Source of the DNA: Lewinella cohaerens DSM 23179
GTDB taxonomy: Bacteria; Bacteroidota; Bacteroidia; Chitinophagales; Saprospiraceae
Assembly: GCF_000379805.1 (NCBI RefSeq)
Contig: NZ_KB903587.1
Coordinates: 158,155-215,648 of the forward strand
Reading direction: 5' to 3'
DNA length: 57,494 bases
The notes beneath the pieces were generated by a model that was not told where the DNA came from, made no database searches, and worked only from the letters and a program-made list of their open reading frames with translations. Position numbers and translations under genes: made by a program. Positions 31,315 to 46,820 of the stretch are shown here, piece after piece; the stretch's first letter is position 1; the number at the start of each line of letters is the position of its first letter.

Positions 31315-32091
31315 TTAATCCTGCCAAGGAAATGCTTCGTAAAAAACAGCAATGGTTTGTTGGAAAGATTCGGGGATACGCTTCATCACTTCCGCTTCAA
31401 TCTCGACAGGAACACCTCCATAAAAAGCTTCGGCAATAGCCCCTGCTATAGAGCCCATGGTATCAGCATCGCCGCCCAGGGAAATGGCGTTACGTACGGC
31501 ACTTTCCCAATTGTTACTTTCTAAAAATGCAATAATTGATGGAGGTACTGATCCCTGACAGCTTACATCGAATTGATAGCCAGAACGGATATCATCTAGT
31601 CGCTGCTCCATATCGTAACCAAAAATACGCTGAACGTGGTCTTTTATCAGGGGTTTGCCAAAACCGGATCGGGCAAGGTAAATGACGGCGGCTACTGCCT
31701 GGGCACCTTTGATGCCCTCGGGATGATTATGGGTAATCTCGGCACTGGCTTTGGCAGCCTTCATCACATCTGACAGTTGTTCAAATGCAAAACCTATGGG
31801 GCTTACCCGCATAGCAGAACCATTGCCCCAACTGTTGTAAGGGCCTGTGATAATACCCGCCATCCATTTTTTAAAAGTACCACCGTAACCCGCCAAAGGA
31901 TATTGACAGGCATAACTCCTAACATTATCTTCGAAAGATTTTTCGGTAAGTAAACTGTCAGCGATTGCAACAGTGAGAACAGTATCGTCGGTAAAGCAAG
32001 AGTCTTCCGTAAAGAGTGGAAAACGCATGTCTTTGACCGGATCTTTTTCGTAGATCGAGCCAATGATATCACCGGCAATAGCACCCAGCAT
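31315..32091 (-). CDS. ADP-ribosylglycohydrolase-family protein (DraG-like)
   Basis: A 258-residue enzyme. Metal-binding motifs of the ADP-ribosylglycohydrolase family are complete: FTDDT (residues 33-37), SWGNGSAMR, THNHPEG, and the C-terminal GGDADTMGSIAGAIAEAFYG (D208, D210, T211). Family members hydrolyse ADP-ribosyl bonds on proteins or small molecules using two Mg/Mn ions, as DraG and ARH3 do. No DraT-like transferase or macrodomain partner is visible, so the substrate is uncertain. The start MLGAIAGDIIGS at 32091 is the normal N terminus of this family. Its 5' end lies 7 nt from a structured repeat (32099-32222), which could be its transcript leader. Confidence 0.93.
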   Translation of the reverse strand: MLGAIAGDIIGSIYEKDPVKDMRFPLFTEDSCFTDDTVLTVAIADSLLTEKSFEDNVRSYACQYPLAGYGGTFKKWMAGIITGPYNSWGNGSAMRVSPIGFAFEQLSDVMKAAKASAEITHNHPEGIKGAQAVAAVIYLARSGFGKPLIKDHVQRIFGYDMEQRLDDIRSGYQFDVSCQGSVPPSIIAFLESNNWESAVRNAISLGGDADTMGSIAGAIAEAFYGGVPVEIEAEVMKRIPESFQQTIAVFYEAFPWQD

Positions 32092-32098
32092 AGCCCCA

Positions 32099-32222
32099 AG
32101 TATTGCGCAGAAAATAAAACGCGATTTTTCTTAAGTTTTCCAAATAGTTAAAACACTTAAAATGAAGCGTTTATTCAACTATTATGAAAAACAAAATCGG
32201 TTTTTATTTTCGTGCTGTTCCT
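32099..32222. repeat. Double-stem inverted-repeat element, copy 1
   Basis: A 124-nt element matched by 46199-46344. The outer arms, 32110-32129 (GAAAATAAAACGCGATTTTT) and 32193-32211 (AAAATCGGTTTTTATTTTC), are imperfect inverted repeats. The inner arms are AATAGTTAAA (around 32143-32152) and TTCAACTATT (32174-32183). The last 82 nt match copy 2 at 76 positions. It ends 7 nt before the minus-strand start codon at 32091. A possible 68-codon plus-strand ORF inside it is judged spurious. Confidence 0.75.
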
Positions 32223-32426
32223 AAGTTAGATGGAGTCCTCTTGGTACTCCTGGTTTTTCGTTTTATCCTACCGATGGACGCATTGCCCGTGCGCTTTTCG
32301 GATTTTGCTAAGATAGGGAGTTCGATTAAAATATTAGAAACATCCGTCAATAAAGGGGAGAAAAGCCTTTATTTCAACGGTGAATGGTAGCTACAACAAC
32401 GACAGCAAGGTTAAAATTGCACTTAC

Positions 32427-32464
32427 AAAAACAGCGGACTTTGCACAAATGACAAAATCCGCTG
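32427..32464 (-). terminator. Intrinsic terminator for the 2385-residue gene
   Basis: On the minus strand, CAGCGGA pairs with TCCGCTG (plus-strand 32458-32464 and 32432-32438), extended by AAA/TTT. It is followed by TTTTTG, downstream of the stop at 32487. Confidence 0.7.
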
Positions 32465-32486
32465 CTTCTATTTAGTTTATTAAGAC

Positions 32487-35400
32487 TTAACGCATAATGA
32501 CAACGTCGCCTTTGATGATTTCTACATCACCGTTTTTGAATTCGATTTCGGCAAACCAAACGTAAACGGCAGCGTTAACGGGTTGGCCGCGATAACTACC
32601 ATCCCAGCCCCAACGAGGGTCGTTCGGTTGGCTACCATAAACTTCGAAGACCGACTCGCCCCAGCGGTTGAACACCAAGAAGGATCTAATTTCCTCCACA
32701 CTATCGTCAGAGAAAATGTAGAAGATATCATTGTCACCATTACCATCAGGTGAGAAAGCATTAGGAACGTAGATGTTCCGGTCTTTCTTCACAAAAATGG
32801 TCAATAAATCTCTGGTTGTACATCCATTTTCATCCTCAAGATCGAGGAAAAACTGGGTAGATTCTTCGAGGGCAAGATCAAGTTGATATACACAACCCGG
32901 GCAAGGAAGATTAGCGAGCGTCTGCCAATCAATGCTCACCAAAGCAGCGGTATCAACACTGATTTCCGGGTATATATCCGCTAATTCACCTTCTGTAATA
33001 TACTGATCAGGCCCTAGCTCCAACGTCAAATCATTACCATCCGGAACTGTAATTGTTGTAAGCAACAAACAACCTGTAGCGTCTTCTACGATTACTTCAT
33101 AATCCCCGGCAATAAGGTCGTTAAAGCTAGTGGTGGTGCCATAAGGCGCGCCTCCGACACTGTACGTGTAAGGCGGAATACCACCTTGCACACCAGTCAG
33201 AATAATTCCGCCATCATCATCGCCAGCACATGTTGGGGTGTCGGTAATGAAATTCAAGGCTTCCGGCTGAGCAGGGTTTAATGATATTTCTACCACATCC
33301 TGTGCCGTACAATCATTTTCCGTATCGGTAACGATCAAGGTATAAGTACCCGGTGCCTCTGCCGTCAATTGTAGGCTAGTAGCATCGTTCACCGGATTAC
33401 CGTTGAGCAACCATTGGTACGCATACGTGCCACCAATTGAGCTTCCTGCACCACTTAACGACGTGGTTGGGAAATTACAATCCAACTCAAAATCATCGCT
33501 CGTTTGTGCTGTTGGCAGCGTAGTATTTTGGCTAACAAAAACAGAATCTATATTTGCACAACCATTTTGTTCATCCGTTACCAATAGGTAGTACCATCCT
33601 GGTTGATTAGCGGAAGCGACGATGTTATTGTTATTGCCAACAATGGATCCATCAGGCGTTGTCCAGTCGTAAGTAATCTGCCCACCCATTTGCGAATCGC
33701 TACCATTGAGTGTTACCACAGGTTCTCCGCAAGTGATGAGTTGAGCGAGGCCAGCTTCAGCCACTGGATACAATTCGTTCTCGGTTACTTCTATCATATC
33801 AGTATTGTCACACCCAGTGAGCGTATCGATAATACTGAGGGTATAAAACTGGGCTTCATTGACATCCAGTAGCAAAGTATTTCCTCCTGGAATAGGATTA
33901 AGGTCTCCATCATACCATTGATAGACAAACTGAGGGCCTCCATCAGAATCACGGGCATCAATCTGGACGGTTGCTGTTGCACAATCCAGAATATCCAACA
34001 CTTCCAATACGATTTGTGGCGTGTAAGCCAAGTCCGTTATTTCTACTTCCGCAGGTACACTTAAACAGCCATAAGTTTCATTCGTAACCTGCAAACTATA
34101 GGTACCCGGTTCGCCAACAGTGGGCGAGAACATATCCTCGTTGGCAGGCGTAATCCCAGGGCCAGTCCATTGATAAGTGAACTGATTGCCTGTTGTACTA
34201 CCATTGCCGCCAATACTTACTTCCAGTACATCACAATCCAAATCTTGCGGGCTACCTGCATCTGCAAGTGGCAGCGGTACCGTAGCTACAGCTTGAGCAC
34301 CGGAAGAGATACAGCCATTAGAGTCGGTGACAGTGACGCCTACCGTTCCTCCCGTGCTTACTTGCACTGATTGCTGATCACTACCCACACTCCAATCGTA
34401 AGCCGCAAACGCAGGCTGTACGTTCAGCTGGGTAAAGGAATCGACACAGAAATTAGTAGGCCCGACAATCGAGAATACCGGCAAGGCTTGCTCGATGACG
34501 GTCGTACTTGTTTCGTTAATACAACCGTTGTCATCCTCCACCGTTACGGAATACGCTCCGGGGGTATTGACCGTAATCATGGTGGTTGGTGCGCTTGTAC
34601 TCCAGGTGTAATTAACATAACCAGGCGTTGCAGATAATTGTGTCGACAAACCAGCACAATAATCCAAATCACCGGTAATTGCAGGAGTAGGCAAAGCATT
34701 TTCAATGACATCAACCATCGCCGTTCCTTCACAACCTCCTGCATCCGTCACATTAAGGGTGTAGGTTCCAGGTTCATCGACAATAATGCTATTCGTTGTT
34801 TCTCCGTTTGACCACATGTAGGTGGCAAAACCAGTACCTGCACTAAGTGTGGTGGACGAGCCAATACAATAATCGCGGGCTCCCGAAATAACGGGTGAAA
34901 GCTCCGTCGCTTCATTTACAAACTCTACTGTATTTCCGATACAACCGTTAGCATCAGTAACCGTAAGACCAACATTACCAGGCGTGTTTACCGTAACCTC
35001 AGGTTGATCGCTACCATCTGACCAACTATAAGTCGAATAAGTAGCACCAGCATTAAGTTGTGTACTGTTTCCAATACAGAAAGTCAAAGACCCCCCAATT
35101 TCCGGCGTTGGTAAAGCATATTGCTGAATATTAATGGCCGCTTCCGAAGGGCAACCATTGTTGTCTATTACATCTAGTTCGTAAATACCACCTGTGTTTA
35201 CTGTAATATCAGCTGTTTGAGCTGAATTCGACCACAGGTATTCTGCATAACCAGGTGTCGCTGATAAATCAGCAGTAAGGCCACTACAGAATCCAACTGG
35301 AGCAGTAATCATTGGGGCTGTTACGATGAAGTTGCTAAGGTCAATACTGTTATTGGTAACACAGCCGTTGCCATCGGTTACGACAAGAGAGATGTTCCCC

Positions 35401-38400
35401 GTTTGCGTAATCGTCACATCGGCCTCGTTAGCTCCATTCGACCAGTTGTAACTAACAAAACCAGCCTCAGCACTCAAATCTGTACTTTCGCCAGGGCAAA
35501 ATTGAGGTTCCCCTGAAATATCTGGAATCGCTGTTACGTATTCTTCTACCGCTTGGGTAGCAACACCAACACAACCATTAGCATCGGTGACCGACAGGCT
35601 AAATGTTTCAGTCGTGCCTACTTCTATACTCGTACCACTGGTATTTGTGCTCCAGAGGTAAGAAACAAAACCTGGTTCGGCCGTCAAAACGGTCGTCAAG
35701 CCCGGGCAATACCCTGGCTCCCCTAGAATAGTCGTTACCGGTAAAGCATTCTGGACAACAGCCGCAGAAGTCATACCAATACAGCCATTATCATCCGTGA
35801 CCGTCAAGCCATAGTTTCCAGGGTTATCTACCACCAGAAACTGGTCCGTATCACCTGCCACACTCCAAGCATAGCTGGCGTAACCGTTTCCACCATTAAG
35901 TGTAGTACTGTCGCCAATACAGTAATCTAAGTCACCACTAATCGCAGGTGTTGGCAAGGCCAATTCAACTACATCTACTGTAGCCGTTCCCATACAACCA
36001 AATTCATCCGCCACCGTAACCGTGTACATACCGGGCGTGCTGACGCTAATTTCGTTAACCTGCGCACTGTTCGACCATTCGTAAGTACTAAAATCATCAG
36101 GCACCGTAAGCGTAGTATTCAATCCTGCACAATAGAAAGGATCTCCATTGATTATAGGATCTAATTCTGAGTCTTCTATGATGGTTGCAGAAGCTGTATT
36201 CTGACAACCATTCGCATCTGTAACCGTAACCGTATAGGTACCAGCTTGATTTAGGAAGATGGTACTCGTGGTTTCCATATTTGACCAAAGGTAACTGACA
36301 TAGCCCTCTGTCGCCGTCAGGTTTGTTCCACCCGCCGGACAGAAACTCAGGCGACCAGTAATCTCAACAGTAGGTAATGGAAACTCGGTGAGGCTTACGG
36401 TATCCGTCGCTGTACAACCATTTTCATCCGTGACCGTAACACTTACATCCATCATGCCTGATGTCGTAACTGTATTCGTGGTGCCTCCGGTTGACCATGC
36501 ATAACTGCTAAAGTTATCTGGAACGCTGAGTGTTGTTGTTTCCCCAAAACAGAAGTCTAGGTCCCCAGTAATCGCAACAGTAGGGATAATCTCTTCCAGT
36601 GTAACACTGGTACTTCCCATACAGCCTTCTGCATCGGTAACCGTAACACCAAAGGTTGTACCATCCATCACATCAAGGGTAGGGTCAGTACTGGTATCAC
36701 TCCATAAATAACTAGTATAAGGTTGATCCAGACTGAGCGTACTGATTTCGTCTTCACAAAGAACCAGGTCGCCAGAAATAACGGGCGTTGGGTTAGGAAC
36801 TTCCACTACTTCGACACTGGATTCGCCAGTACAACCGATCGCATCGGTAACGGTAACGGTAACAATACCGGGGCCAACCCCAGTGACTTCATTTGTGCTT
36901 CCGCTGACGGTCCAGCTGTAGTTATTATAGCCGGAGTCTGCTGTTAATACTGTTGTACTACCAGGACAAACCGTTAAATCACCAGCAATTGCAGGTGTTG
37001 GTGACGGTACTTCGGTAACATCAATGTCTAAAAAACTTTCACAACCGTCCCCATCGGTGCCTATCACCCAGTAATTACCAGGGCTGGTGACGGTAATCGT
37101 TTGCGTAGTTTCATTGTTACTCCATAAATAGGAATCATAACCAGCAGAAGCCATTAGCTGGCCATCACCGTCAGAACAGATTTGGGTATCACCCACGATA
37201 TCAATGGGTTCAGCTTCTCCTTCCGGAATGTCGATTGACGCGAAAGCTTCACAACCATTTTGATCAATGACTTCGACTTCATAAAGTCCGGGGCCAACAA
37301 TGTCATAGATGTTAGTACTCGGTCCTCCTATCCATTGAACATTCATGAAGCTTCCCGAAATGGATACCTGCCCAAAAGCATTGTTACAAAGTGCGTCTGG
37401 CCCATCTATTTCTAACTCAACAGGAATATTGACGACAACATCCACACTCGTCTCTCCTTCACAACCATTATCATCGGTAACGGTAACAGAGTAGGTGTCT
37501 GTCTCATCTACGTTAAGTTCAAAGTTAGTAGTACCATCTGACCATTCGTAGCCACTGTAGTTACCTACTACGACTAAGTCTGTATTTTCGCCTTCACAAA
37601 TGGCCAAATCTCCTGTAATACTAGGAGAAGGAGGCGTTAGCTCATCTACAAAGAAATCGAGAATCTGGGTACAACCATCTACACTGGTAACTGTAACCGT
37701 ATAATCTCCTTCCATATCAATAAACTGCTCATTCCCACTTAAGCTATTCGACCATTCATAGGTATCATAGCCATCTGTAATGGTAAGCTCAGTGCTTTCG
37801 CCGGGGCAGAAAAATAAATCTCCTTCAACAAAGGCATCAACGCCTTCGCCTTCAATTACTTCGAAATCGGTTTCCCCTTCACAGCCGTTACCGTCTGTAA
37901 CGGTAACAGTGTAAATTCCCGCCGCATCTACTGGTGTAGACTGGGTATTGAAGGAGGTTGACCAACTATATCCAGCAAAGTTTTCGGTAACCGACAGCGT
38001 GATAGTCTCTCCGGGGCATACCGCCTCCGGACCATCAATTTCGGGCTCTGGCAATGGATTTTCTTCTACTTCTACTTCCGCAGTGCCTTCACAGCCTAAA
38101 TCATCTATAACCGTTACAGAATAAGGGCCCGGTGCATCTACATAGATATCCTGGAAGGTTTCCGTTGTAGACCATTCATAGCTCACAAAACCATTAGACG
38201 CTATCAGCGTCGTTCCTTCTCCTTCACAGTAATCTAAATCACCAGAAATTGTAACAACTACAGGAGCAGCTACATTAAGGGTAAAGTTTGTCGTGCCTTC
38301 ACAGCCATTATCATCGGTAACAGTTACCTCATAGCCTCCAAAATCAGTGACGACAATACTTTGCGTGAACTCGACGGTAGACCATTCATAAGCCGCAAAG

Positions 38401-39644
38401 TCTTCTAGTACTTCCAAAACGGCATCATCTCCGTCACAGATTTCGTCAGGGCCGAAAATGGTAGGTTCTGGATTAGGGAAAGCCTCTACCGTAAAATCGG
38501 TAACACTCTCACAACCTGCAGGATCACTTACGGTAACAGAGTAAGTTCCCGGGCCAACATTGATATTGTCAGCGGTAGAACTTGTACTCCAAAGGATATC
38601 ATCAAAGGGGCCACCAATCAATTCCAAAGTCGTCGTTTCTGTATCACAGACGAAATCGTCTCCGGTAATTTCTACATCTGGGCCTTCTCCTACTAACACT
38701 TCTACTTCAACAAAGTCTTCGCACCCAAATTCATCTGTTACGGTGAGGGTGTAAACAATATCGCCTACAAAATCAGGCGGGATATTGACATTGGTCGTTA
38801 GTGAAAAAGGATTAGAAAGATAGCTATCACCGCCATTTGTAGCTGACCAAGAGTAACTAGCTCCGGTTGCACCAGGTGCAGTTGCGATCATGGTAAAGCT
38901 GTTGCTTCCAGCACAAAACTCATACATATCTTCATTGATTGTCATCATAAAGTCGGGACAATCATAGAAACAGGAGCCATCATCGACAATGGCATTAGGG
39001 TCAAAATTAATGGCATCAGGATCAGTACAGCCACAAAGTACCGGGTTCGGGAAAATATAGGTGATATCAAGCGCTACGCCTGAGTCTGCTCCTGCATGAT
39101 CTGAAATACAAATATTGGTAGTAATATCCTCATCGGGAGGAAACAACGTCCAAAGATCGGCGAAAGAGGTTACTCCGGGAGTACCTAAACCACAACCATC
39201 ATCGGCTGTCAGTCCGTAATCTCCTCCTCCTAAGACCATACCATTCTCAGGGTCAGGACCTCCACCATCGGAAAACGTATAGGTCGAGGGGTTACCTGGA
39301 GTCCCTAAGTCAGCAGAGTTACCACAAGGGCACCCTCCTGTACAGCTTCCCAGTACACCGGGGCGCTGAAAAATATTCAAATAAGTCCCATCTACCTCAA
39401 TCCATAATGCTAAATCTCCTTGCCAAGTGTGCTGAATATCCAGCGACAAACCTGTAGGAAACCCAGTTAAAGCGGGGTTGAAGGTAAGGGTAACACAATA
39501 AGCATTGTCTAAGTCCCCATCCACAGGTACCGAAACATCCGGTAAAGCTACCGTGGGGTTTTCACATTGCGAATGAAGTAAACTACTATACAGCATTCCT
39601 ATTACTAGGAAAACAGAGGTTACAATTGGTAAAATTTTGCTCAT
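32487..39644 (-). CDS. Giant Ig-like repeat surface protein (2385 aa) with T9SS type B tail, paralog A
   Basis: Architecture, in order: signal peptide; P-domain-like beta-sandwich (residues ~26-205, with LSLDIQHTWQGDLALWIEVD and GLTADDGCGLGTPGVTSF); a Cys-rich DxDx-type calcium motif (CTDPDAINFDPNAIVDDGSC). Then come 21 tandem ~70-residue Ig-like units, each with 'ITGDLxxCxGESTTL', 'YLWSNGETT' and 'TYTVTVTDxNGC'. Four longer 'LDC' type repeats (about 85 residues), one SprB-like repeat (TCAGDDDGGIILTGVQGG) and the gliding-motility C-terminal domain (YVPNAFSPDGNGDNDIFYIF, FLVFNRWGESVFEVY) complete it. It is likely an exported adhesin. The upstream gene at 40037 is a tandem paralog with the same plan but 16 units. 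Repeat count is from my manual reading and could be off by one. Confidence 0.95.
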   Translation of the reverse strand: MSKILPIVTSVFLVIGMLYSSLLHSQCENPTVALPDVSVPVDGDLDNAYCVTLTFNPALTGFPTGLSLDIQHTWQGDLALWIEVDGTYLNIFQRPGVLGSCTGGCPCGNSADLGTPGNPSTYTFSDGGGPDPENGMVLGGGDYGLTADDGCGLGTPGVTSFADLWTLFPPDEDITTNICISDHAGADSGVALDITYIFPNPVLCGCTDPDAINFDPNAIVDDGSCFYDCPDFMMTINEDMYEFCAGSNSFTMIATAPGATGASYSWSATNGGDSYLSNPFSLTTNVNIPPDFVGDIVYTLTVTDEFGCEDFVEVEVLVGEGPDVEITGDDFVCDTETTTLELIGGPFDDILWSTSSTADNINVGPGTYSVTVSDPAGCESVTDFTVEAFPNPEPTIFGPDEICDGDDAVLEVLEDFAAYEWSTVEFTQSIVVTDFGGYEVTVTDDNGCEGTTNFTLNVAAPVVVTISGDLDYCEGEGTTLIASNGFVSYEWSTTETFQDIYVDAPGPYSVTVIDDLGCEGTAEVEVEENPLPEPEIDGPEAVCPGETITLSVTENFAGYSWSTSFNTQSTPVDAAGIYTVTVTDGNGCEGETDFEVIEGEGVDAFVEGDLFFCPGESTELTITDGYDTYEWSNSLSGNEQFIDMEGDYTVTVTSVDGCTQILDFFVDELTPPSPSITGDLAICEGENTDLVVVGNYSGYEWSDGTTNFELNVDETDTYSVTVTDDNGCEGETSVDVVVNIPVELEIDGPDALCNNAFGQVSISGSFMNVQWIGGPSTNIYDIVGPGLYEVEVIDQNGCEAFASIDIPEGEAEPIDIVGDTQICSDGDGQLMASAGYDSYLWSNNETTQTITVTSPGNYWVIGTDGDGCESFLDIDVTEVPSPTPAIAGDLTVCPGSTTVLTADSGYNNYSWTVSGSTNEVTGVGPGIVTVTVTDAIGCTGESSVEVVEVPNPTPVISGDLVLCEDEISTLSLDQPYTSYLWSDTSTDPTLDVMDGTTFGVTVTDAEGCMGSTSVTLEEIIPTVAITGDLDFCFGETTTLSVPDNFSSYAWSTGGTTNTVTTSGMMDVSVTVTDENGCTATDTVSLTEFPLPTVEITGRLSFCPAGGTNLTATEGYVSYLWSNMETTSTIFLNQAGTYTVTVTDANGCQNTASATIIEDSELDPIINGDPFYCAGLNTTLTVPDDFSTYEWSNSAQVNEISVSTPGMYTVTVADEFGCMGTATVDVVELALPTPAISGDLDYCIGDSTTLNGGNGYASYAWSVAGDTDQFLVVDNPGNYGLTVTDDNGCIGMTSAAVVQNALPVTTILGEPGYCPGLTTVLTAEPGFVSYLWSTNTSGTSIEVGTTETFSLSVTDANGCVGVATQAVEEYVTAIPDISGEPQFCPGESTDLSAEAGFVSYNWSNGANEADVTITQTGNISLVVTDGNGCVTNNSIDLSNFIVTAPMITAPVGFCSGLTADLSATPGYAEYLWSNSAQTADITVNTGGIYELDVIDNNGCPSEAAINIQQYALPTPEIGGSLTFCIGNSTQLNAGATYSTYSWSDGSDQPEVTVNTPGNVGLTVTDANGCIGNTVEFVNEATELSPVISGARDYCIGSSTTLSAGTGFATYMWSNGETTNSIIVDEPGTYTLNVTDAGGCEGTAMVDVIENALPTPAITGDLDYCAGLSTQLSATPGYVNYTWSTSAPTTMITVNTPGAYSVTVEDDNGCINETSTTVIEQALPVFSIVGPTNFCVDSFTQLNVQPAFAAYDWSVGSDQQSVQVSTGGTVGVTVTDSNGCISSGAQAVATVPLPLADAGSPQDLDCDVLEVSIGGNGSTTGNQFTYQWTGPGITPANEDMFSPTVGEPGTYSLQVTNETYGCLSVPAEVEITDLAYTPQIVLEVLDILDCATATVQIDARDSDGGPQFVYQWYDGDLNPIPGGNTLLLDVNEAQFYTLSIIDTLTGCDNTDMIEVTENELYPVAEAGLAQLITCGEPVVTLNGSDSQMGGQITYDWTTPDGSIVGNNNNIVASANQPGWYYLLVTDEQNGCANIDSVFVSQNTTLPTAQTSDDFELDCNFPTTSLSGAGSSIGGTYAYQWLLNGNPVNDATSLQLTAEAPGTYTLIVTDTENDCTAQDVVEISLNPAQPEALNFITDTPTCAGDDDGGIILTGVQGGIPPYTYSVGGAPYGTTTSFNDLIAGDYEVIVEDATGCLLLTTITVPDGNDLTLELGPDQYITEGELADIYPEISVDTAALVSIDWQTLANLPCPGCVYQLDLALEESTQFFLDLEDENGCTTRDLLTIFVKKDRNIYVPNAFSPDGNGDNDIFYIFSDDSVEEIRSFLVFNRWGESVFEVYGSQPNDPRWGWDGSYRGQPVNAAVYVWFAEIEFKNGDVEIIKGDVVIMR

Positions 39645-40036
39645 AGACGGATAGATTAAAAATACAGTAACACCAATTACTATCAGTATTAATATACTAA
39701 TAAGGATTGATAACAGAAAGATAGTCTACGAGAGCGCGAGTGATTTTTAAAAATACAATGACAGCAAGAGGTCTGTTCCTCTTGTCCGTTGTTTTGGTCT
39801 AATCTACTCCAGCACAGCATTTAATACAATTAAAATCAGGCTAAAGAAGCAAGACATCAGACGTGCTAATTATTTGGAAATAACCAACACCGTCTTCATT
39901 TATAGGTTCGCTGTTATACAAAAGTAGGTTTTTCTTTTATTAATAAAAGAAAAACCAAATAAAAATAAAGTCCGGATATTGACGATACTTGCCCTAACAA
40001 CCAATAATACAAGCCTTTAAGTTTTACCCATGCGGA
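39645..40036. other. AT-rich gap between giant paralogs with a 30-bp palindrome
   Basis: The 392-nt gap has no ORF of note. At 39927-39956 GGTTTTTCTTTTATT is followed by its exact reverse complement AATAAAAGAAAAACC, a 30-bp perfect palindrome. CAAGAGG/CCTCTTG (39765-39784) is a short hairpin. A promoter for the gene starting at 39644 should lie here, but I see no clear consensus. Confidence 0.6.
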
Positions 40037-43000
40037 TCATTTTATTAGTGTGATCTCTCCCTTTTCAATAATTTTCTCTCCACTTTTCAACTTAATCTCT
40101 GCAAACCAGACAAAAACGGCGGGATTTAGTGGCCGTCCAGACTGTTTTCCATCCCATCCCAGCATAGGCTCATCTGGTTGAATATTTTTGGTTTCCCAAA
40201 CCATACTCCCCCATCGTTCAAAAATCTGAAGAGAATTTATCTCTTCAATGGTATTCCCATCTGTCTGTAGGAAGAAATAGTCGTTGTAGCCATCATCGTT
40301 AGGGGAAAAAATATTTGGCACAAAGATGCCTTCTCTCTTTTTTACAAAAATAGTCACCTCGTCTTTAGCAATACAGCCATTTTCATCGGTGACCGTTAAG
40401 AAAAACTGCGTAGCCTCGAACAAGGTTATACGCGTTTGGTTGAGGCATTCAGGACAGGATAGTTCTGCCGCTGTTTGCCAAGACAATGATTGCAACGCCA
40501 AAGAATCGATGCTCAGTTCAGGGATAATATCAGCTTGATCGCCGGCTTCAATCGTTTGATTATCACCTAATTCTACCCACAAATCATTACCATCCTCTAA
40601 TTCGGCTAGTGCTGTCAATTGACACCCGTTAGCATCTTCTAGGATCACTTGGTAGCTACCCGCCCCCAAATTCTGAAAATTGGTATTCAAGCTGAAGGGT
40701 TGACCAGCAAAACTATAAACGTAAGGACTTAGCCCACCACTCACTCCGCTAATAGAAACACTACCGTCCGTGTCACCTGCGCAGGTTGGAGGGTCAAATA
40801 CTAGCTCAAAACTCTGAGGTGCCTCAGGGTCTTCAAGTATTTCTACGGAAGCACTGGCACTACAACTATTTTCTACATTTGTAACTACTAATTCGTAAGT
40901 ACCAGGGGCTTCCACCGTCAAATTAAGGTTAGTCGCAGTAGGTAGAGGTGTATTAGCCTGCCACCACTGGTAAGTAAATTGGTTCCCTTGGCTACTTCCT
41001 TGTCCACTAATCGTTACATTGGCATCATTACAAAAGAGGGTAATTACATCACTCGTCACAACATCTGGAATCACGACATCTTCTACCACTTCCAGGGAAT
41101 CCGTCGTAGCACATCCATTTGTGATATCTGTTACTGTAAAAAAGTACATGCCCGGGGTATTCGTCATAATCATTGACGAAGAAGGATCGCCAATAATATT
41201 ACCTCCGGTAGTTGTCCATTCTTGAACGATTGTAGTAGCTTCGGAGGTGGTCGTTCCCGTAAGGCTCACCTCCATAATGGCACAATCAAGCTGTTCTCCT
41301 CCAGCAATAGTCACTGCTGGATAGTTGAAATCTTCTAACACTGGCATCGTTCCTTGTGCAACACAAGCTGTGAGCATGTTCGTCACTACAAGCGTATAGG
41401 TGCCAGGTGTGTTAACCTCTAAATTCAAGGAGGTTTCAGCACTCAATACCTCACCAGAAGGATCCAGCCACTCATAAGAAAATGCTGATCCTGTCGCAGA
41501 GCCACTCCCGTCTAACACTACTGTATTGGTGATACAATCCAGGGTATCAGCTATTGCAAGATTCAATGCTGGTGCTTCGTTCATCAGCAATACCTCAACG
41601 CTGTCTATGCCGCTCAAACAACCATTGGCCTCATCAGTTACCTGTAAGTAATATAGACCAGGTTCGCTTACCACTGGTGATAATTCTCCTTGATTACTCA
41701 TCGTAATTCCAGGCCCCGACCAAGTGTAAGAGATCGTGTCACCTTGCGAAGTACTTTCACTGCCTAGCAAAACACTGTCTGTATCACAATCTAAAACTTG
41801 TCCTTCTCCGGCAAAAGCCCAGGGAAGTTCAATTTCAACGACCGAAGACTGGGCTTCGTTTTGGCAACCGGCATCATCCGTGATGGTAACACTTACATCG
41901 CCAGGGGTACTTACTATTGTTGAAAACCCTGTATCTCCGGTACTCCAGAGGTAAGAAGCAAAACCCGTTGGTACTGTTAATTCGGCTGAGTCTTCTTCGC
42001 AAAACCTTGTCGGCCCCACAATAACTACCGGTGGCACGGCTAACATTTCTACCGTAGCCGAGGCACTAGCCTGGCAGCCATTATTATCTGTAAATACCAA
42101 ACTGTATTCTCCGCCAGCGTTGACCTCAAGGGAGGAGGATGTCTCACCATTATCCCATAAGAACATACCTGTTGATGACGCTTGCGCATCGAGTACCGTA
42201 CTCAGATTTGCACAAAAAGAAGTATCTCCGGTTATCGAAACGGATGGAGCAGAAAAGGCTACTACATCCAAAGAAATCTCTCCTGTACACCCCGCTTCGT
42301 CGGTAACGGATACCGTATAGGTTCCTCCGGCATCTACGATTAATGAATCTCCAATACTTCCATCTGACCAACTATAGGTCGCATATTCTTCCGTAACGTA
42401 AAGTGTCGTAATTTCATCCGGGCAAAGCCCTTGATCACCCGTAATTCCAGGTGTTAATCCATCTGCTATAGTTAGCGTTACCCCAGTACTACCTACACAA
42501 TTGTTAGTATCAACAACGGTAAGGCTCACTGGTCCAGGGCTTCCTACACTGATTGAATCAGTTGTTTCTGCGGTAGACCAAGTATAACTACTATAAGATT
42601 CGTTGACACTCAGCGTCGTGGGAAAGCCGTCGCAGAAGCTAAGCGCACCTTCGATGGTTGGTTCAGGAAGATCATAAACGACAACACCAACGGTACTGCT
42701 ATAAGTACAACCAAAAGCGTCCATTGCACTAACGGATAAAGTATCAGCGGCAAGCACCGTTACTTCACTAGTGGTTTCACCGTTGGACCAAATATAGCTG
42801 ACAAAATCCCCCGTTACACTCAGGGTTGCACTTTCGCCTTCACAAAACCCTGCAGGAGCAACTACCGCGAGTGTTCCTTCTGGAAAAAGGCTCAGGTCAG
42901 CAATACTACTTGTTACACAACCATTACTATCCGTTACCGTCACACCTGCTGATCCGGGGATATTAAAAGTAGTCGTAGGAGTGGTATCATTATTTGACCA

Positions 43001-46000
43001 TAAATAGGTCTCGAATGCAGGGCTTACGGTCAGTTCTGTTGTTGTAGCAACACAAAATTGCAACTCACCGTTGATTTCTGGATCGATGGTGGCAAATTCG
43101 TCAACGATTTCGGCAGTCGTTCCTACACAACCGTTAGAATCAATGACCGTAAGCCTTACAAATCCTTCCGTTGCGACCATCGTCTGCGGGCCTGTATCGC
43201 CATTGTCCCAAAAATAAAGGGCGTAAGTATCATTACTCGTAAGAACAGTAGTATCACCGGGGCAAAAGCCTGTTTCCCCAAGAATTTCTGGATTTGGAGA
43301 AGGAAAAGTCGTTACTTCTACCATGTCTTCGCCCACACAACCGTTCCCATCAGTCACGGTTAATCCATAAAAACCACTGTTGTTGATGGTTAATAATTGT
43401 CCTCCATTGGGCAGCGTTGACCATTGGTAACTGGTATAGCCCGAACCACCATTAAGTACTGAGGTTACCCCTTCACAAAAGCTGAGGTTACCGGTAATCA
43501 TTGGCTGGGGCAAGGTGTCTACTTCTACCTGGACATTAGCGGTAGCAGTACACCCCAAGTCATTGGTCACTGTCAACGAATAATTCCCGGCATCGCCTAC
43601 GGTGATGGCGGCTGTTTCTTCTGTTGTAGACCAAAGGTAGCTACTGAAGGTGCTGTCTGGCATCAGCGTTGTGCTACTGCCTTCACAGAAACTATCATTG
43701 CCCTCAATACTGAATTGAGGGATAGAAAAACTTACAGCCTGACTCGCCGTTGCTGTACACCCAAAATTATCTGTAACCGTTACTCCGTAAACCAATGCAT
43801 CCGTAACGGTAATGGATTCGGTTTCACTGGCATCAGACCATAGGTAACTGACAAAACCAGGGCTAGCTGTTAACTGTCCATTGCCACCCACACAAATTTC
43901 CGTTACGCCGGATATAGCAACCGAAGGTGCTGACAGCTCGGAAAGCGTGAAACTACCACTAACCCGACAGCCATTACTATCCGTGGCAAACAAAACATAG
44001 ACAGCGGCAGAATCTACGGAAATGGCAGCTGTAGTAGCTCCGGTAGACCATAGATAATCGGTAAATCCAGGTGGCCCGGTGAGTGTAGTCGCCGTTCCGG
44101 CACAAATTTCCGCGGGACCATCAATAACGATGAGTTCTGGCACATAATTCGTCAAAATAACGGTATCTGCACCTACACAACCCGCCGAGTTCGTAACCGT
44201 TACCTCGTAAATTCCTGTTTGATCAATAAAAATTTGTGCCGTGGTATCTCCTGTTGACCACTGATAAGTAGCAAAACCAGAAGCAACCGATAACAAAGTA
44301 CTATCTCCAATACAGAAAATAGTATCTCCCATGATTTCAGGCATGGGCAATGGTGCATCAAGTACGGAAAATGCTGTCATGCCGGTACAACCTGCCGAAT
44401 CCACCACTGTCAATTGATAGATTCCCATTGAATCCGTCAAGATGGAGCTTGTAGTGTCTCCCGTCGACCAGAGGTAATTCACAAAACCAATTGTACTGCT
44501 CAAGGTAGTTGATTCTCCAGGGCATAGGCTATCTGAACCCGTAATCAACGGAACAGGCAGAGAAAGGGTATCGATTATAAAGGAGGCTTCAGATAAACAC
44601 ATATTACTATCTGTGGCCATCAACATAATCGTATCTGACTGACTGACTTCGATGGACAAAGTAGTGTCTCCGGTAGACCACAGATAACTTACAAAACCGG
44701 TTGAAGCTTCTAGCGTAGCTGTCTCATCAACACAAAAAGAGGCAGGGCCTGTAATCGTGAGTGGTGTGACATCATAGTGTGCTAAAGAAAAAGTATCGCG
44801 TGCAGTACAACCGTTACTGTCTACAACTTCGAGGGTATATTCCTGTGCCAACTGCACGTTTGTAAAAGGCAATGTATCACCATTGGACCATTGGTAGCTC
44901 ACAAAACTGGTATCGACAAACAAAAGAACACTATCTAATGCACAAATCGTGTCAAGGCCATTAATCATGACAGAAGGTGTGGGGAAAGCGCCCACAACAA
45001 TCATATCCGTTCCATCACAAATCCCGCCGTCACTAACGGTTACGCTATAGGTTCCAGCACCAACAAGGAGGGTGTCGGTTGTCGCGCCATTGCTCCATAA
45101 AATACTTTGAAAAGGGCCGCCTTGTAATACCAAGAGCGTACTGTCCGTTCCACAAACGAAGGGGTCGCCAGTGATTTCAACCAGCGGGGCTGCTGCAACC
45201 GTCACAAGTGTTGAGGCAAACTCTTGACAATTGTACTCATCGGTAATCGTACAAGTGTAGGTTATATTACCAGAAAAGCCTGCGGGAATAAAAACACGAG
45301 TCGTTGCACTATTTGCATCTTCTAAAAAGCTGTTGCCTATACCTGTGCCGATCCATTCGAAAGTGGGGTTACTCGCCAAGCCTGCTGTAACAGAAAGCGT
45401 GATGGTATCGCCAGCGCAGGCGTCAATTTGAACCGCAGCATTCATTACATCAAAGTCCTGGCATTCATAGAAACAATCACCACTGCTGACACTGGCATCC
45501 GGGTTGTAATTGATCGCATTAGGATCCATACAACCACACTCGTAAGGATTAGGAAAAATAAAATTGAGGTTAGAAACATAGCCTTGGTGAAGGGTAGCGT
45601 GATCGGTAAAGCATATTTCTGCTTCTACCAAACCTTCGGGACAATTGCTCCAAAGGTCTACGAACGAATTGACTCCTGGTGTTCCTACGCCACAGGCATC
45701 ATCAGCTGTAAGGCCAAAGTTGCCACCAGCTGAAATACCGCCATCTGGTTCGGTACCGTTATCGTAAAAAGTAATGATTTCCGGTGCTGGTTGAGTACCA
45801 ATCATAGCACTGCTTCCACAGTCCCCATCAGGTATATTAAATGCACAATCAGGATCACAATTCCCTACGGCTCCGGGACGCTGTAAAACATTGAGCCGCT
45901 GCCCACAGGCTTCGACAAAGATACCAAGATCACCTTCGTATTCATGCCACAAGTCCATTGTAATCCCCGTAGGCCAGCCAGTAATATCGCTGTCAAAGCG

Positions 46001-46174
46001 AAAGTAGAAACAATGCGCTTCGGGGTTACTGGCGCTCGATTCCGATACGGGTATTGGTGTATCAAGGAGAGCACCTTCCTGTCCGTCGCATGGTTGCCCC
46101 CAGCCAATAGCTGGAGCAAGGCCCAAACATAAACATGCGATCAAGACCCCTTTTTTTTGTAGATAGTTGAACAT
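40037..46174 (-). CDS. Giant Ig-like repeat surface protein (2045 aa) with T9SS type B tail, paralog B
   Basis: The plan is identical to the 2385-residue neighbour. A signal peptide is followed by a P-domain-like region (residues ~26-215, with ITMDLWHEYEGDLGIFVEA and GLTADDACGVGTPGVNSFV) and a Cys-rich loop motif (CMDPNAINYNPDASVSSGDC). Sixteen ~70-residue Ig-like units (YLWSTGDTT, GVTVTDNFGC) come next. Then four 'LDC' units, one SprB-like unit (TCAGDTDGSVSISGVSGG) and the T9SS type B tail (FVPNIFSPNDDGYNDYFFLQ, LQIFERWGSMVWET). The five-unit difference from paralog A and otherwise parallel layout indicate tandem duplication followed by repeat expansion or loss. The start at 46174 is preceded at 24 nt by copy 2 of the double-stem element. 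Confidence 0.95.
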   Translation of the reverse strand: MFNYLQKKGVLIACLCLGLAPAIGWGQPCDGQEGALLDTPIPVSESSASNPEAHCFYFRFDSDITGWPTGITMDLWHEYEGDLGIFVEACGQRLNVLQRPGAVGNCDPDCAFNIPDGDCGSSAMIGTQPAPEIITFYDNGTEPDGGISAGGNFGLTADDACGVGTPGVNSFVDLWSNCPEGLVEAEICFTDHATLHQGYVSNLNFIFPNPYECGCMDPNAINYNPDASVSSGDCFYECQDFDVMNAAVQIDACAGDTITLSVTAGLASNPTFEWIGTGIGNSFLEDANSATTRVFIPAGFSGNITYTCTITDEYNCQEFASTLVTVAAAPLVEITGDPFVCGTDSTLLVLQGGPFQSILWSNGATTDTLLVGAGTYSVTVSDGGICDGTDMIVVGAFPTPSVMINGLDTICALDSVLLFVDTSFVSYQWSNGDTLPFTNVQLAQEYTLEVVDSNGCTARDTFSLAHYDVTPLTITGPASFCVDETATLEASTGFVSYLWSTGDTTLSIEVSQSDTIMLMATDSNMCLSEASFIIDTLSLPVPLITGSDSLCPGESTTLSSTIGFVNYLWSTGDTTSSILTDSMGIYQLTVVDSAGCTGMTAFSVLDAPLPMPEIMGDTIFCIGDSTLLSVASGFATYQWSTGDTTAQIFIDQTGIYEVTVTNSAGCVGADTVILTNYVPELIVIDGPAEICAGTATTLTGPPGFTDYLWSTGATTAAISVDSAAVYVLFATDSNGCRVSGSFTLSELSAPSVAISGVTEICVGGNGQLTASPGFVSYLWSDASETESITVTDALVYGVTVTDNFGCTATASQAVSFSIPQFSIEGNDSFCEGSSTTLMPDSTFSSYLWSTTEETAAITVGDAGNYSLTVTNDLGCTATANVQVEVDTLPQPMITGNLSFCEGVTSVLNGGSGYTSYQWSTLPNGGQLLTINNSGFYGLTVTDGNGCVGEDMVEVTTFPSPNPEILGETGFCPGDTTVLTSNDTYALYFWDNGDTGPQTMVATEGFVRLTVIDSNGCVGTTAEIVDEFATIDPEINGELQFCVATTTELTVSPAFETYLWSNNDTTPTTTFNIPGSAGVTVTDSNGCVTSSIADLSLFPEGTLAVVAPAGFCEGESATLSVTGDFVSYIWSNGETTSEVTVLAADTLSVSAMDAFGCTYSSTVGVVVYDLPEPTIEGALSFCDGFPTTLSVNESYSSYTWSTAETTDSISVGSPGPVSLTVVDTNNCVGSTGVTLTIADGLTPGITGDQGLCPDEITTLYVTEEYATYSWSDGSIGDSLIVDAGGTYTVSVTDEAGCTGEISLDVVAFSAPSVSITGDTSFCANLSTVLDAQASSTGMFLWDNGETSSSLEVNAGGEYSLVFTDNNGCQASASATVEMLAVPPVVIVGPTRFCEEDSAELTVPTGFASYLWSTGDTGFSTIVSTPGDVSVTITDDAGCQNEAQSSVVEIELPWAFAGEGQVLDCDTDSVLLGSESTSQGDTISYTWSGPGITMSNQGELSPVVSEPGLYYLQVTDEANGCLSGIDSVEVLLMNEAPALNLAIADTLDCITNTVVLDGSGSATGSAFSYEWLDPSGEVLSAETSLNLEVNTPGTYTLVVTNMLTACVAQGTMPVLEDFNYPAVTIAGGEQLDCAIMEVSLTGTTTSEATTIVQEWTTTGGNIIGDPSSSMIMTNTPGMYFFTVTDITNGCATTDSLEVVEDVVIPDVVTSDVITLFCNDANVTISGQGSSQGNQFTYQWWQANTPLPTATNLNLTVEAPGTYELVVTNVENSCSASASVEILEDPEAPQSFELVFDPPTCAGDTDGSVSISGVSGGLSPYVYSFAGQPFSLNTNFQNLGAGSYQVILEDANGCQLTALAELEDGNDLWVELGDNQTIEAGDQADIIPELSIDSLALQSLSWQTAAELSCPECLNQTRITLFEATQFFLTVTDENGCIAKDEVTIFVKKREGIFVPNIFSPNDDGYNDYFFLQTDGNTIEEINSLQIFERWGSMVWETKNIQPDEPMLGWDGKQSGRPLNPAVFVWFAEIKLKSGEKIIEKGEITLIK

Positions 46175-46198
46175 ACCTTTCTTCCTTTTTGCTTCCTT

Positions 46199-46344
46199 AG
46201 TATTGCACAGAAAATAAACTGCGATTAGCTTCGCTGCTTCTTCGAGGTCTCTTTAGGTTTTTCAAATAGTTGAAACACTTGAAATGAATCGTTTATTCAA
46301 CTATTATGAAAAACAGAATCGAATTTTATTTTCGTGCTGTTCCT
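46199..46344. repeat. Double-stem inverted-repeat element, copy 2
   Basis: A 146-nt copy of the element at 32099-32222, in the same orientation. Outer arms are 46210-46226 (GAAAATAAACTGCGATT) and 46317-46333 (AATCGAATTTTATTTTC). The inner arms, AATAGTTGAA (46265-46274) and TTCAACTATT (46296-46305), are perfect. Relative to copy 1 it carries ~22 extra nt near AGCTTCGCTGCTTCTTCGAG. It ends 24 nt before the minus-strand start codon at 46174. Confidence 0.75.
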
Positions 46345-46820
46345 TGGAAGCCATCTTCTTCTACCAGGTTAACCCAAGCAAAAGACTAAAGTCTGAGTGT
46401 ATGTTCATGGGATAAAACAAAACATAATTCGCGAACTCCAAATCAAAAAACATATAAACAGGCAACTAACTTGTTGTCAGGTTTATACAAAGTCTTATTT
46501 TTTCAAATAAGTACGTTCCTACTACCCCCAAATAAATAAATCATGTTTGGGTCTGAACGTGTTCAGGTAGTAAAAACTTTCCAATAACTGAGGCAACGGG
46601 ACTGCACTAACCAAAGCAGCTTTTAATTACTTTGGTGTGAATGTTAAGGCGAGTGTAGAAAACATAGTTTGCAAGTAGAACGGGTATACTGATCAGTATC
46701 TCCCCGGCTAATTGTGCTTATAAAGGAATACAAATATAGTTTTTAATTAATAGAAAAAGAAAATATCCAAAAAATTATCAAATATAAAATAGCCATAATA
46801 TCTGGTGGCCGACAAGGAGG
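46345..46820. other. AT-rich intergenic region without genes
   Basis: The rest of the 646-nt gap upstream of paralog B. It contains a short AGACTAAAGTCT palindrome near 46387 (REP-like core), a TACTACC/GGTAGTA inverted pair near 46516-46572 and AT-rich sequence (46728-46790). I see no ORF, tRNA or strong promoter. It probably holds the promoter of the giant gene and the terminator of proline dehydrogenase. Confidence 0.5.

What the first reader, a model, noticed from the sequence alone, without database searches (positions are those of the whole stretch)
32099..46344. Two copies of a double-stem palindromic element placed just 5' of unrelated genes
A 124-nt (32099-32222) and a 146-nt (46199-46344) element share 76 of 82 nt in their distal part plus both ends. 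Each has outer inverted arms (GAAAATAAA...GATT with its complement) and inner arms (AATAGTT.AA with TTCAACTATT), so both can fold into a stem-within-stem. Both end 7 and 24 nt before the ATG of a minus-strand gene (ADP-ribosylglycohydrolase; giant paralog B), in the same orientation. The bases in the outer stem differ between copies but pairing is retained in most positions. This could be a MITE-like mobile element lacking a transposase, a REP-like repeat or a structured 5' leader. The two copies flank exactly the tandem giant-gene pair, so recombination between them could delete or duplicate that locus.
Basis: partly seen in the sequence, partly recalled or inferred. Interest (0 to 1): 0.72.

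Follow-up and report, generated by a model that had tools for sequence, protein, structure and literature searches.

The report
Hairpin-shaped mobile repeat in Lewinella-group bacteria
The two odd palindromes are copies of a small, gene-less mobile DNA element that sits in well over a hundred places of this bacterium's genome, and related bacteria carry versions whose stem letters differ widely while the folded shape and one small loop stay the same.

Summary
The two window sequences (32100-32221, 46200-46343) belong to a dispersed family: its two end motifs match 235 and 175 times in this 7.3-Mb genome (controls 4 and 6). Intact copies are one ~120-nt imperfect hairpin: A-rich stem 1, a 6-nt bulge on one side, an 18-bp stem 2 and a conserved apex. 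It inserts: a same-genus relative has empty sites, and the flanking 3 bp (TNA) are duplicated in 56 of 112 copies, 26 expected. In the own genome it prefers gaps between co-directional genes and one orientation (60:21), the left end within 13 nt of a start codon in 22 of 77 cases. Elements of other stem types, in four further genera, keep apex and architecture; 27 of 41 pairs carry pair-preserving double changes. No Rfam family reaches threshold, and my paper searches found no description. Best reading: a new family of structured MITE, moved in trans by a DDE-type transposase with 3-bp TNA staggering (IS5/IS1031-like). No partner was found. What the conserved apex does is open. Recombination deleting the giant-gene pair is untested.

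The parts
32097..32099 (.). left target duplication of copy 1 (CAA; right partner 32222-32224 TAA, one mismatch)
32100..32221 (+). hairpin element, copy 1 (main ~120-nt form)
32153..32173 (+). conserved apex of copy 1 (ACACTTAAAATGAAGCGTTTA)
32222..32224 (.). right target duplication of copy 1 (TAA)
31315..32091 (-). ADP-ribosylglycohydrolase gene whose start codon lies 8 nt from the left end of copy 1
46197..46199 (.). left target duplication of copy 2 (TTA; right partner TTG, one mismatch)
46200..46343 (+). hairpin element, copy 2 (form with a 22-nt module in the left arm)
46227..46248 (+). 22-nt GC-richer module at the bulge of copy 2; in other copies a like module is in either arm (limits approximate)
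46275..46295 (+). conserved apex of copy 2
46344..46346 (.). right target duplication of copy 2 (TTG)
40037..46174 (-). giant PKD/CHU_C (type IX secretion signal) protein gene downstream of copy 2
32487..39644 (-). second giant PKD/CHU_C protein gene lying between the two copies

Best explanation
A non-autonomous transposable element (MITE) with a conserved folded shape. Shown: many copies (235 and 175 end-motif matches); ends GTATTGCGCAGAAAATAAA...TTTATTTTCGTGCTGTTCC; insertion at a TNA target (context CTNAG) with duplication of 3 bp in about half of the copies; empty sites in a relative; shortened copies that have lost the inner hairpin; in the own genome, preferred orientation between co-directional genes. 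Shown across genomes of five genera: the same architecture with different stem types and a shared apex. Inferred: a DDE-type transposase of the IS5/IS1031 kind (3-bp TNA) acts in trans on the ends; stems and apex are kept because only copies that fold and show the apex go on multiplying (or are tolerated in transcripts); the orientation bias reflects what is tolerated in front of start codons.
For: Copy number. Sizes, ends and flanks of 122 copies in 540,801 bases of own-genome DNA held. TNA duplication exact in 56 of 112 (26.3 expected, maximum 41 in 5000 re-pairings); TTA/TTA 35, TAA/TAA 14, cross pairs 5; 14 of 24 in relative G002, without a shuffle control. Empty sites: 10 complete and 1 partial joined junction (of 16 prepared, from 27 candidates) searched in three same-genus genomes; 8 of 11 gave a match across the junction in G002 with no full element there, cleanest at C2:255594, C8:160153 and C12:56744; at C2:223332 a stretch TATACTGTTC may be a remnant, so that site may be a loss and not an empty site; C3:119993 is filled in G001 too. 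Covariation on 17 elements of 8 genomes (2 of them own-genome): 88.8% of 695 cells paired (shuffled 69.3, slid partners 41-55), 141 double-change cells (45.9), score 0.505 (0.158), 0 of 500 shuffles as high. Apex positions 2 and 17 covary: A-T 45, G-C 38, other 19 of 102. IS5-type elements with TAA or TTA flanks: 3 of 8 PF13340 loci looked at, in G127, G002 and G021; the IS1031 group is stated to give 3-bp TNA repeats (PMC12016507, passage).
Against: No autonomous partner found: 15 solitary left ends and 9 solitary right ends were followed through the DNA held next to them (34 to 4000 bases), and none encloses a gene with a matching second end; one runs into a neighbouring full copy, one into a short degenerate copy, two give only 4-mismatch matches. 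The IS5-type elements have different terminal repeats. The outermost bases of the two ends (GTATT, GGAAC) are only weakly alike, unlike usual MITE ends. Half of the copies lack an exact 3-bp duplication, and the C2:255594 empty site shares only 1 base. Within the own genome covariation is weak. A plain MITE needs no conserved apex, so the most striking feature is left to inference.
Confidence: 0.62

Rival explanations
1. A structured regulatory RNA element (5' leader or intercistronic processing hairpin) that the host uses, spread by transposition but kept for its function in mRNA, as proposed for ERIC and Correia elements.
For: Orientation bias 60 (-|-) to 21 (+|+); left end within 3-13 nt of ATG in 22 of 77 start-facing cases against 1 of 40 for the right end; pair-preserving changes across genomes; precedents for ERIC and Correia transcripts (PMC2229807, passages).
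Against: 25 of 122 copies have lost most of the hairpin and 33 of 122 lack a recognisable apex, so most single copies do not seem needed; the bias is weaker in G002 (11:6) and not seen in 21 loci of six other genomes (6:4); insertion sites differ between relatives. No expression data.
Confidence: 0.2
2. The folded strand is itself the mobile substrate: a single-strand (IS200/IS605, RAYT or integron-cassette-like) or RNA-mediated (SINE-like) mobile hairpin whose apex is read by the mobilising protein.
For: Architecture with a constant stem 2, a one-sided bulge and a covarying apex kept while stem types differ; all five element pairs lying within 400 bp of each other share orientation, as do four full-partial neighbours read; asymmetric ends.
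Against: A 3-bp target duplication is not expected of Y1 or integron systems (established knowledge, recalled); no copy beside the four Y1 matches; strand preference relative to replication only 16:11 in G002 (counted by hand).
Confidence: 0.13
3. Ordinary long palindrome that corrects itself: arms stay complementary because hairpin-templated repair copies one arm to the other, with no selection on the fold.
For: Palindromes are known to self-correct (recalled); within the own genome some outer-stem positions are mismatched in many copies and covariation is weak.
Against: Does not by itself explain the constant 18-bp stem 2, the one-sided bulge or the shared apex across stem types.
Confidence: 0.1

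Closest known systems
ERIC / IRU elements of enterobacteria (review PMC2229807, passages read)
   Same: About 127-bp imperfect palindrome (length recalled), intergenic, many copies, one hairpin, orientation matters for transcript effects
   Different: No sequence comparison with ERIC made; target here is 3-bp TNA, ERIC is listed with TA ends (TA duplication recalled); different phylum; shared apex across stem types of several genera
Correia/NEMIS, RUP, BOX, SPRITE (PMC2229807 and PMC3049150, passages)
   Same: Small repeats described as AT-rich with inverted ends, target duplication and base-paired transcripts, no own transposase (not every trait in every family)
   Different: RUP is linked to IS630-Spn1 and a TA target, here TNA and no partner known; pneumococcal repeats are over-represented between convergent genes, this one lies mostly between co-directional genes
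CIR elements of Caulobacter and relatives (PMC2229807, passage)
   Same: Motif kept in an exposed terminal loop across species
   Different: CIR loop carries GANTC and CIR has two arms with a linker; here one long hairpin and an apex CNCTTNAAATGAANCGYTT
IS5 family, IS1031 group (PMC12016507, passage)
   Same: 3-bp TNA target duplication, ends that begin with G; three IS5-type loci in this group of genomes have TAA/TTA flanks
   Different: Terminal repeats (GAGTATG, GAGCCTG, GAAGCCG) do not match the element's ends
REP/REPIN with RAYT (PMC3733652 and PMC3116915, search listings only)
   Same: Hairpins dispersed between genes
   Different: REPs are 20-40 bp; here ~120 nt with target duplication and no copy beside the Y1 matches

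Membership tests
Bacterial MITE (class) | Short (<200 bp), non-coding, many dispersed copies | tested here: met
   34-188 bp (measured ATTG to GTTC) in 122 copies read; 235 and 175 end matches
Bacterial MITE (class) | Terminal inverted repeats | tested here: met
   GAAAATAAA arms paired, outermost bases imperfect
Bacterial MITE (class) | Target-site duplication and empty sites | tested here: met
   3-bp TNA exact in 56 of 112; empty sites in G002
Bacterial MITE (class) | Autonomous IS with the same ends | tested here: inconclusive
   None at 24 solitary ends in the DNA held; genome not scanned for every transposase
IS5/IS1031-derived MITE | 3-bp TNA duplication | tested here: met
IS5/IS1031-derived MITE | Terminal repeats shared with an IS5-type element of the host group | tested here: not met
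   10 PF13340 matches in 5 of 7 genomes; 8 loci looked at, repeats seen in 3 and different; other IS5 branches not searched
ERIC | TA target duplication (recalled) | tested here: not met
   TNA, 3 bp
ERIC | ERIC core sequence | not tested
   No ERIC alignment made
REP/RAYT | 20-40 bp unit next to a Y1 transposase gene | tested here: not met
   ~120 nt; 4 Y1 loci without a copy
IS200/IS605 or PATE | No target duplication (recalled) | tested here: not met
   Duplication present
Integron attC | Conserved base boxes, variable apex, adjacent cassettes (recalled) | tested here: not met
   Conservation is reversed and copies are dispersed
Known Rfam RNA | Score above gathering threshold | tested here: not met
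   0 in the window; three further loci give only matches below threshold

The most novel reading that the evidence does not exclude
A mobile genetic element defined by a fold and a loop instead of by sequence: a bacterial hairpin whose stems have been rewritten in several lineages while a 21-nt apex, the bulge and the stem lengths are kept, because the folded strand (single-stranded DNA or RNA) is what its mobilising protein recognises through the apex, a bacterial counterpart of a SINE.
Probability: 0.15. Interest if true: 0.85.

Novelty: new variant of a known kind. Interest (0 to 1): 0.56.

Why it matters
Small hairpin repeats of bacteria are usually recognised within one genus by sequence, so which part of them matters is unknown. 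Here genomes of five genera carry the same hairpin design with several unlike stem types and one shared loop, which separates what seems needed (apex, bulge, stem length, ends, TNA target) from what is not, and makes a mobility or RNA role of the fold directly testable. It also accounts for a large class of palindromes in gene gaps of these genomes and gives a search handle (the apex) for related families.

Tried and rejected
REP/RAYT partner: the four Y1 transposase matches of the own genome have only 3-mismatch matches to the end motifs nearby; rejected. Autonomous partner through solitary ends: 15 left-only and 9 right-only exact ends, none enclosing a gene within the DNA held, which was often under 2 kb. 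Some right-only ends read TATTTTCGTGCTGTTC and are explained by loss between two TATT direct repeats. IS5-type partner: 10 PF13340 matches in 5 of 7 genomes, 8 loci looked at, ends differ; kept only as the kind of enzyme that fits a 3-bp TNA duplication. Replication-strand preference: 27 exact left ends in G002, 16 against 11, counted by hand; not supported. Coding reading of the apex (ATG AAN CGY TTA opens a short frame): frames differ in length and sequence between stem types (inspection); rejected. Phages, plasmids, viral contigs: no match. Single apex matches outside the family: 6 of 395 phylum genomes (reversed control 2); the four of these six that were folded are not such hairpins. Of four single apex matches in the family, G161 folds as the element; G041, G118 and G158 do not. 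Of the six G054 hits, four fold as elements, L234 does not, and L240 was not centred and so not judged.

Literature: searches. Nothing describing this family appeared in their listings. PMC2229807, PMC3049150 and PMC12016507 were seen as passages; PMC3733652 and PMC3116915 as listings only.

Limits: most members of alignment A2 from outside the own and G002 main types were picked by the apex pattern, so the 0.85 apex identity is partly built in; the independent fact is that the first G054 hits came from a whole-element search and five of six covered the apex. The structure counted came from one member (G127). Stem type does not follow genus strictly: G001, of the own genus, has copies of the G127/G021/G136 type. 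Genes are ORFs of at least 100 aa with ATG from a script, not annotation, and distances run to ATTG, 2 nt more than to the element's first base. P values treat copies as independent. Copies read are those listed by capped searches, not all in the genome. That the own genome is of the Lewinella group rests on the names of three contigs.

Full report
1. The observation. Both elements are in the sequence as described. With the duplicated target left out they run 32100-32221 and 46200-46343. BLASTN between them gives 84 of 92 identical bases in the distal part and 25 of 28 at the left end. Both fold better than all 200 shuffles, as + strand DNA and as RNA of either strand. Beyond the left ends lie an ADP-ribosylglycohydrolase gene and a giant PKD/CHU_C protein gene, 8 and 25 nt from the start codons.

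2. Copies in the genome. BLASTN with the two copies lists 49 and 74 matches, some copies giving several (40 candidates scored of 229 and 205). The left-end motif ATTGCGCAGAAAA with at most 1 mismatch occurs 235 times (4 for the reversed-pattern control), the right-end motif TTTTCGTGCTGTTC 175 times (6 for the control). In 540,801 bases of own-genome DNA held, 122 elements have both ends within 260 bases: 74 of 112-125 nt, 23 longer, 25 shorter (lengths ATTG to GTTC). The shorter ones lack inner parts of the hairpin, down to 34 nt; a 16-base form, TATTTTCGTGCTGTTC, can be explained by deletion between two TATT repeats. Most longer ones carry 22-nt modules at the bulge on either arm, or an extra hairpin in place of the apex loop. 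89 of 122 have a recognisable apex. All five pairs of elements within 400 bp of each other share orientation.

3. It is an insertion. Flanks tend to CTNAG|element|CTNAG. Left and right flank bases agree beyond what the shared consensus gives at the TNA positions: exact 3-mer match in 56 of 112 copies (10 tandem members left out), 26.3 expected, maximum 41 in 5000 re-pairings; TTA with TTA 35, TAA with TAA 14, crossed 5. In G002 14 of 24, no shuffle control. Joined flanks of 10 complete loci and 1 partial one (of 16 prepared from 27 candidates) were searched in three same-genus genomes. Eight of the 11 match across the junction in G002 with no full element there: cleanly at C2:255594, C8:160153 and C12:56744, less so at C7:78042 and C8:66626, and with diverged junctions at C2:223332, C4:24181 and C7:6510; at C2:223332 a stretch TATACTGTTC could be a remnant of the element. 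C8:160153 also looks empty in G003. The clean sites do not all show a neat 3-bp duplication: C2:255594 shares one base, C8:160153 shows TTA plus one extra base. C3:119993 is filled in G001 too, so that insertion predates the split. Of the other two loci, C5:198537 matched on one side only and C1:393954 not at all.

4. Where it sits. By simple ORF calling, 60 copies lie between two genes that run against the element's + strand, 21 between two that run with it, 17 divergent, 12 convergent, and 12 overlap an ORF or lack a neighbour. The left end faces a gene start in 77 of 111 (p 5e-5), and 22 of these starts are 3-13 nt away; the right end faces a start in 40 of 112 (p 0.003), and only 1 is that near. 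In 13 of 72 cases the stop codon of the ORF on the right side lies exactly in the 3 bases beside the right end. G002 shows 11 to 6, and 21 loci of six other genomes 6 to 4, so the bias is established for the own genome only. A likely reason (inference): the left end puts an A-rich, unpaired stretch before the start codon, the right end a pyrimidine stretch.

5. Relatives. All four genomes of the genus have matches. A whole-element search of 120 family genomes found the own genome, G002, and weak hits in three others, six of them in G054 of another genus, five of these over the apex. Four of the six were seen to be hairpins with other stems and the same apex. The apex pattern CNCTTNAAATGAANCGYTT occurs in 11 of 199 family genomes: G054 103, G000 89, G136 34, G002 16, G127 12, G001 4, G021 3 and 1 each in four; the reversed control hit once in all 199. 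In 395 phylum genomes only the own one has several; 6 others have one, with 2 control hits, and the four of those six that were folded are not such hairpins. So as a multicopy repeat it was seen only in this family. Folded examples share a GTA-type left end, A-tract, stem 1, a bulge of about 6 nt on the 5' side, an 18-bp stem 2 and the apex. There are several stem types: the main own type, a second own-genus type, one shared by G127, G021, G136 and G001 (G001 is of the own genus), one in G054 and one in G161. On 17 elements of 8 genomes in five genera and 41 pairs, 88.8% of 695 cells pair (69.3 shuffled, 41-55 with partners slid), 27 pairs and 141 cells have changes on both sides (19.7 and 45.9 shuffled), covariation 0.505 against 0.158, none of 500 shuffles as high; the number of further pair types is a weaker signal, 57 against 51, reached by 21 of 500. 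Within the own genome (47 copies) covariation is weak: double changes at 3 of 26 predicted pairs and no covariation bonus. Pairwise identity is 0.85 in the apex and 0.54-0.67 in the stem arms, with the caveat that many members were chosen by apex. Apex positions 2 and 17 covary (A-T 45, G-C 38 of 102), so the apex itself probably folds.

6. Named relatives. The scan of named genomes gave three contigs: two of an uncultured Lewinella MAG and one of a Bacteroidetes MAG. Lewinella is in Lewinellaceae, Saprospirales.

7. What it is. Copies without genes, inverted ends, a short target duplication and empty sites fit a MITE. A 3-bp TNA duplication fits the IS1031 group of IS5 (PMC12016507, passage), and three IS5-type loci in these genomes have TAA or TTA flanks, but their ends differ, so the partner is unknown. 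Y1, integron and REP readings fail on the duplication, on which part is conserved and on gene neighbourhood. The apex and the preserved fold are not explained by a plain MITE: either the fold is needed for mobility, or for tolerance or function in transcripts. I rank the first higher because 33 of 122 individual copies lack a recognisable apex, which suggests that selection acts on the multiplying lineage and not on each copy; this is inference.

8. Novelty. No Rfam family reaches threshold, plasmids, phages and viral contigs gave no match, and the paper searches listed in Tried and rejected returned no description. Compared with ERIC, Correia, RUP, BOX and CIR it is a new family of the same broad kind, with an unusual kind of fold conservation.

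Noticed in passing
L098 (G000:C46:34124-34468, minus): A Y1 transposase-like gene (open frame 162 aa) with long near-perfect palindromes of another family on both sides (e.g. CCGTAGAGTCGGGTTT...AAACCCGACTCTACGG), which looks like a REP/RAYT-type pair.
   Followed up: no
window 46227-46248; L088, L089, L117, L118: A 22-nt GC-rich module (about CCACGAAGTAGCCGCGAAGCGA) occurs in one or two units at the bulge of the hairpin, on the right arm or, reversed, on the left arm; it may be a repeat of its own.
   Followed up: partly
G000:C35:223261, C16:109261, C2:377543, C12:56744: In four copies the apex loop is replaced by an extra stretch, in most with GCATCCC...GGG-like arms.
   Followed up: no
G136:C10:52, C27:75, C33:25, C66:50; G054:C14:75: Several apex matches lie within 100 bases of a contig end, as expected if near-identical copies break assemblies and the family is recent there.
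   Followed up: no
L279, L280, L281, L282: IS5-type (PF13340) loci in the same group of genomes, three with 3-bp TAA/TTA flanks; the own-genome match contains an in-frame stop.
   Followed up: partly
L086, L257, L276, L278: A second subfamily with ends ATTGCGCAAAAAA and other stems coexists with the main one in the own genome and in G002.
   Followed up: partly
window 32487-46174: Two giant proteins (2385 and 2045 aa) with Ig/PKD-type repeats and C-terminal type IX secretion signal domains lie in tandem.
   Followed up: no
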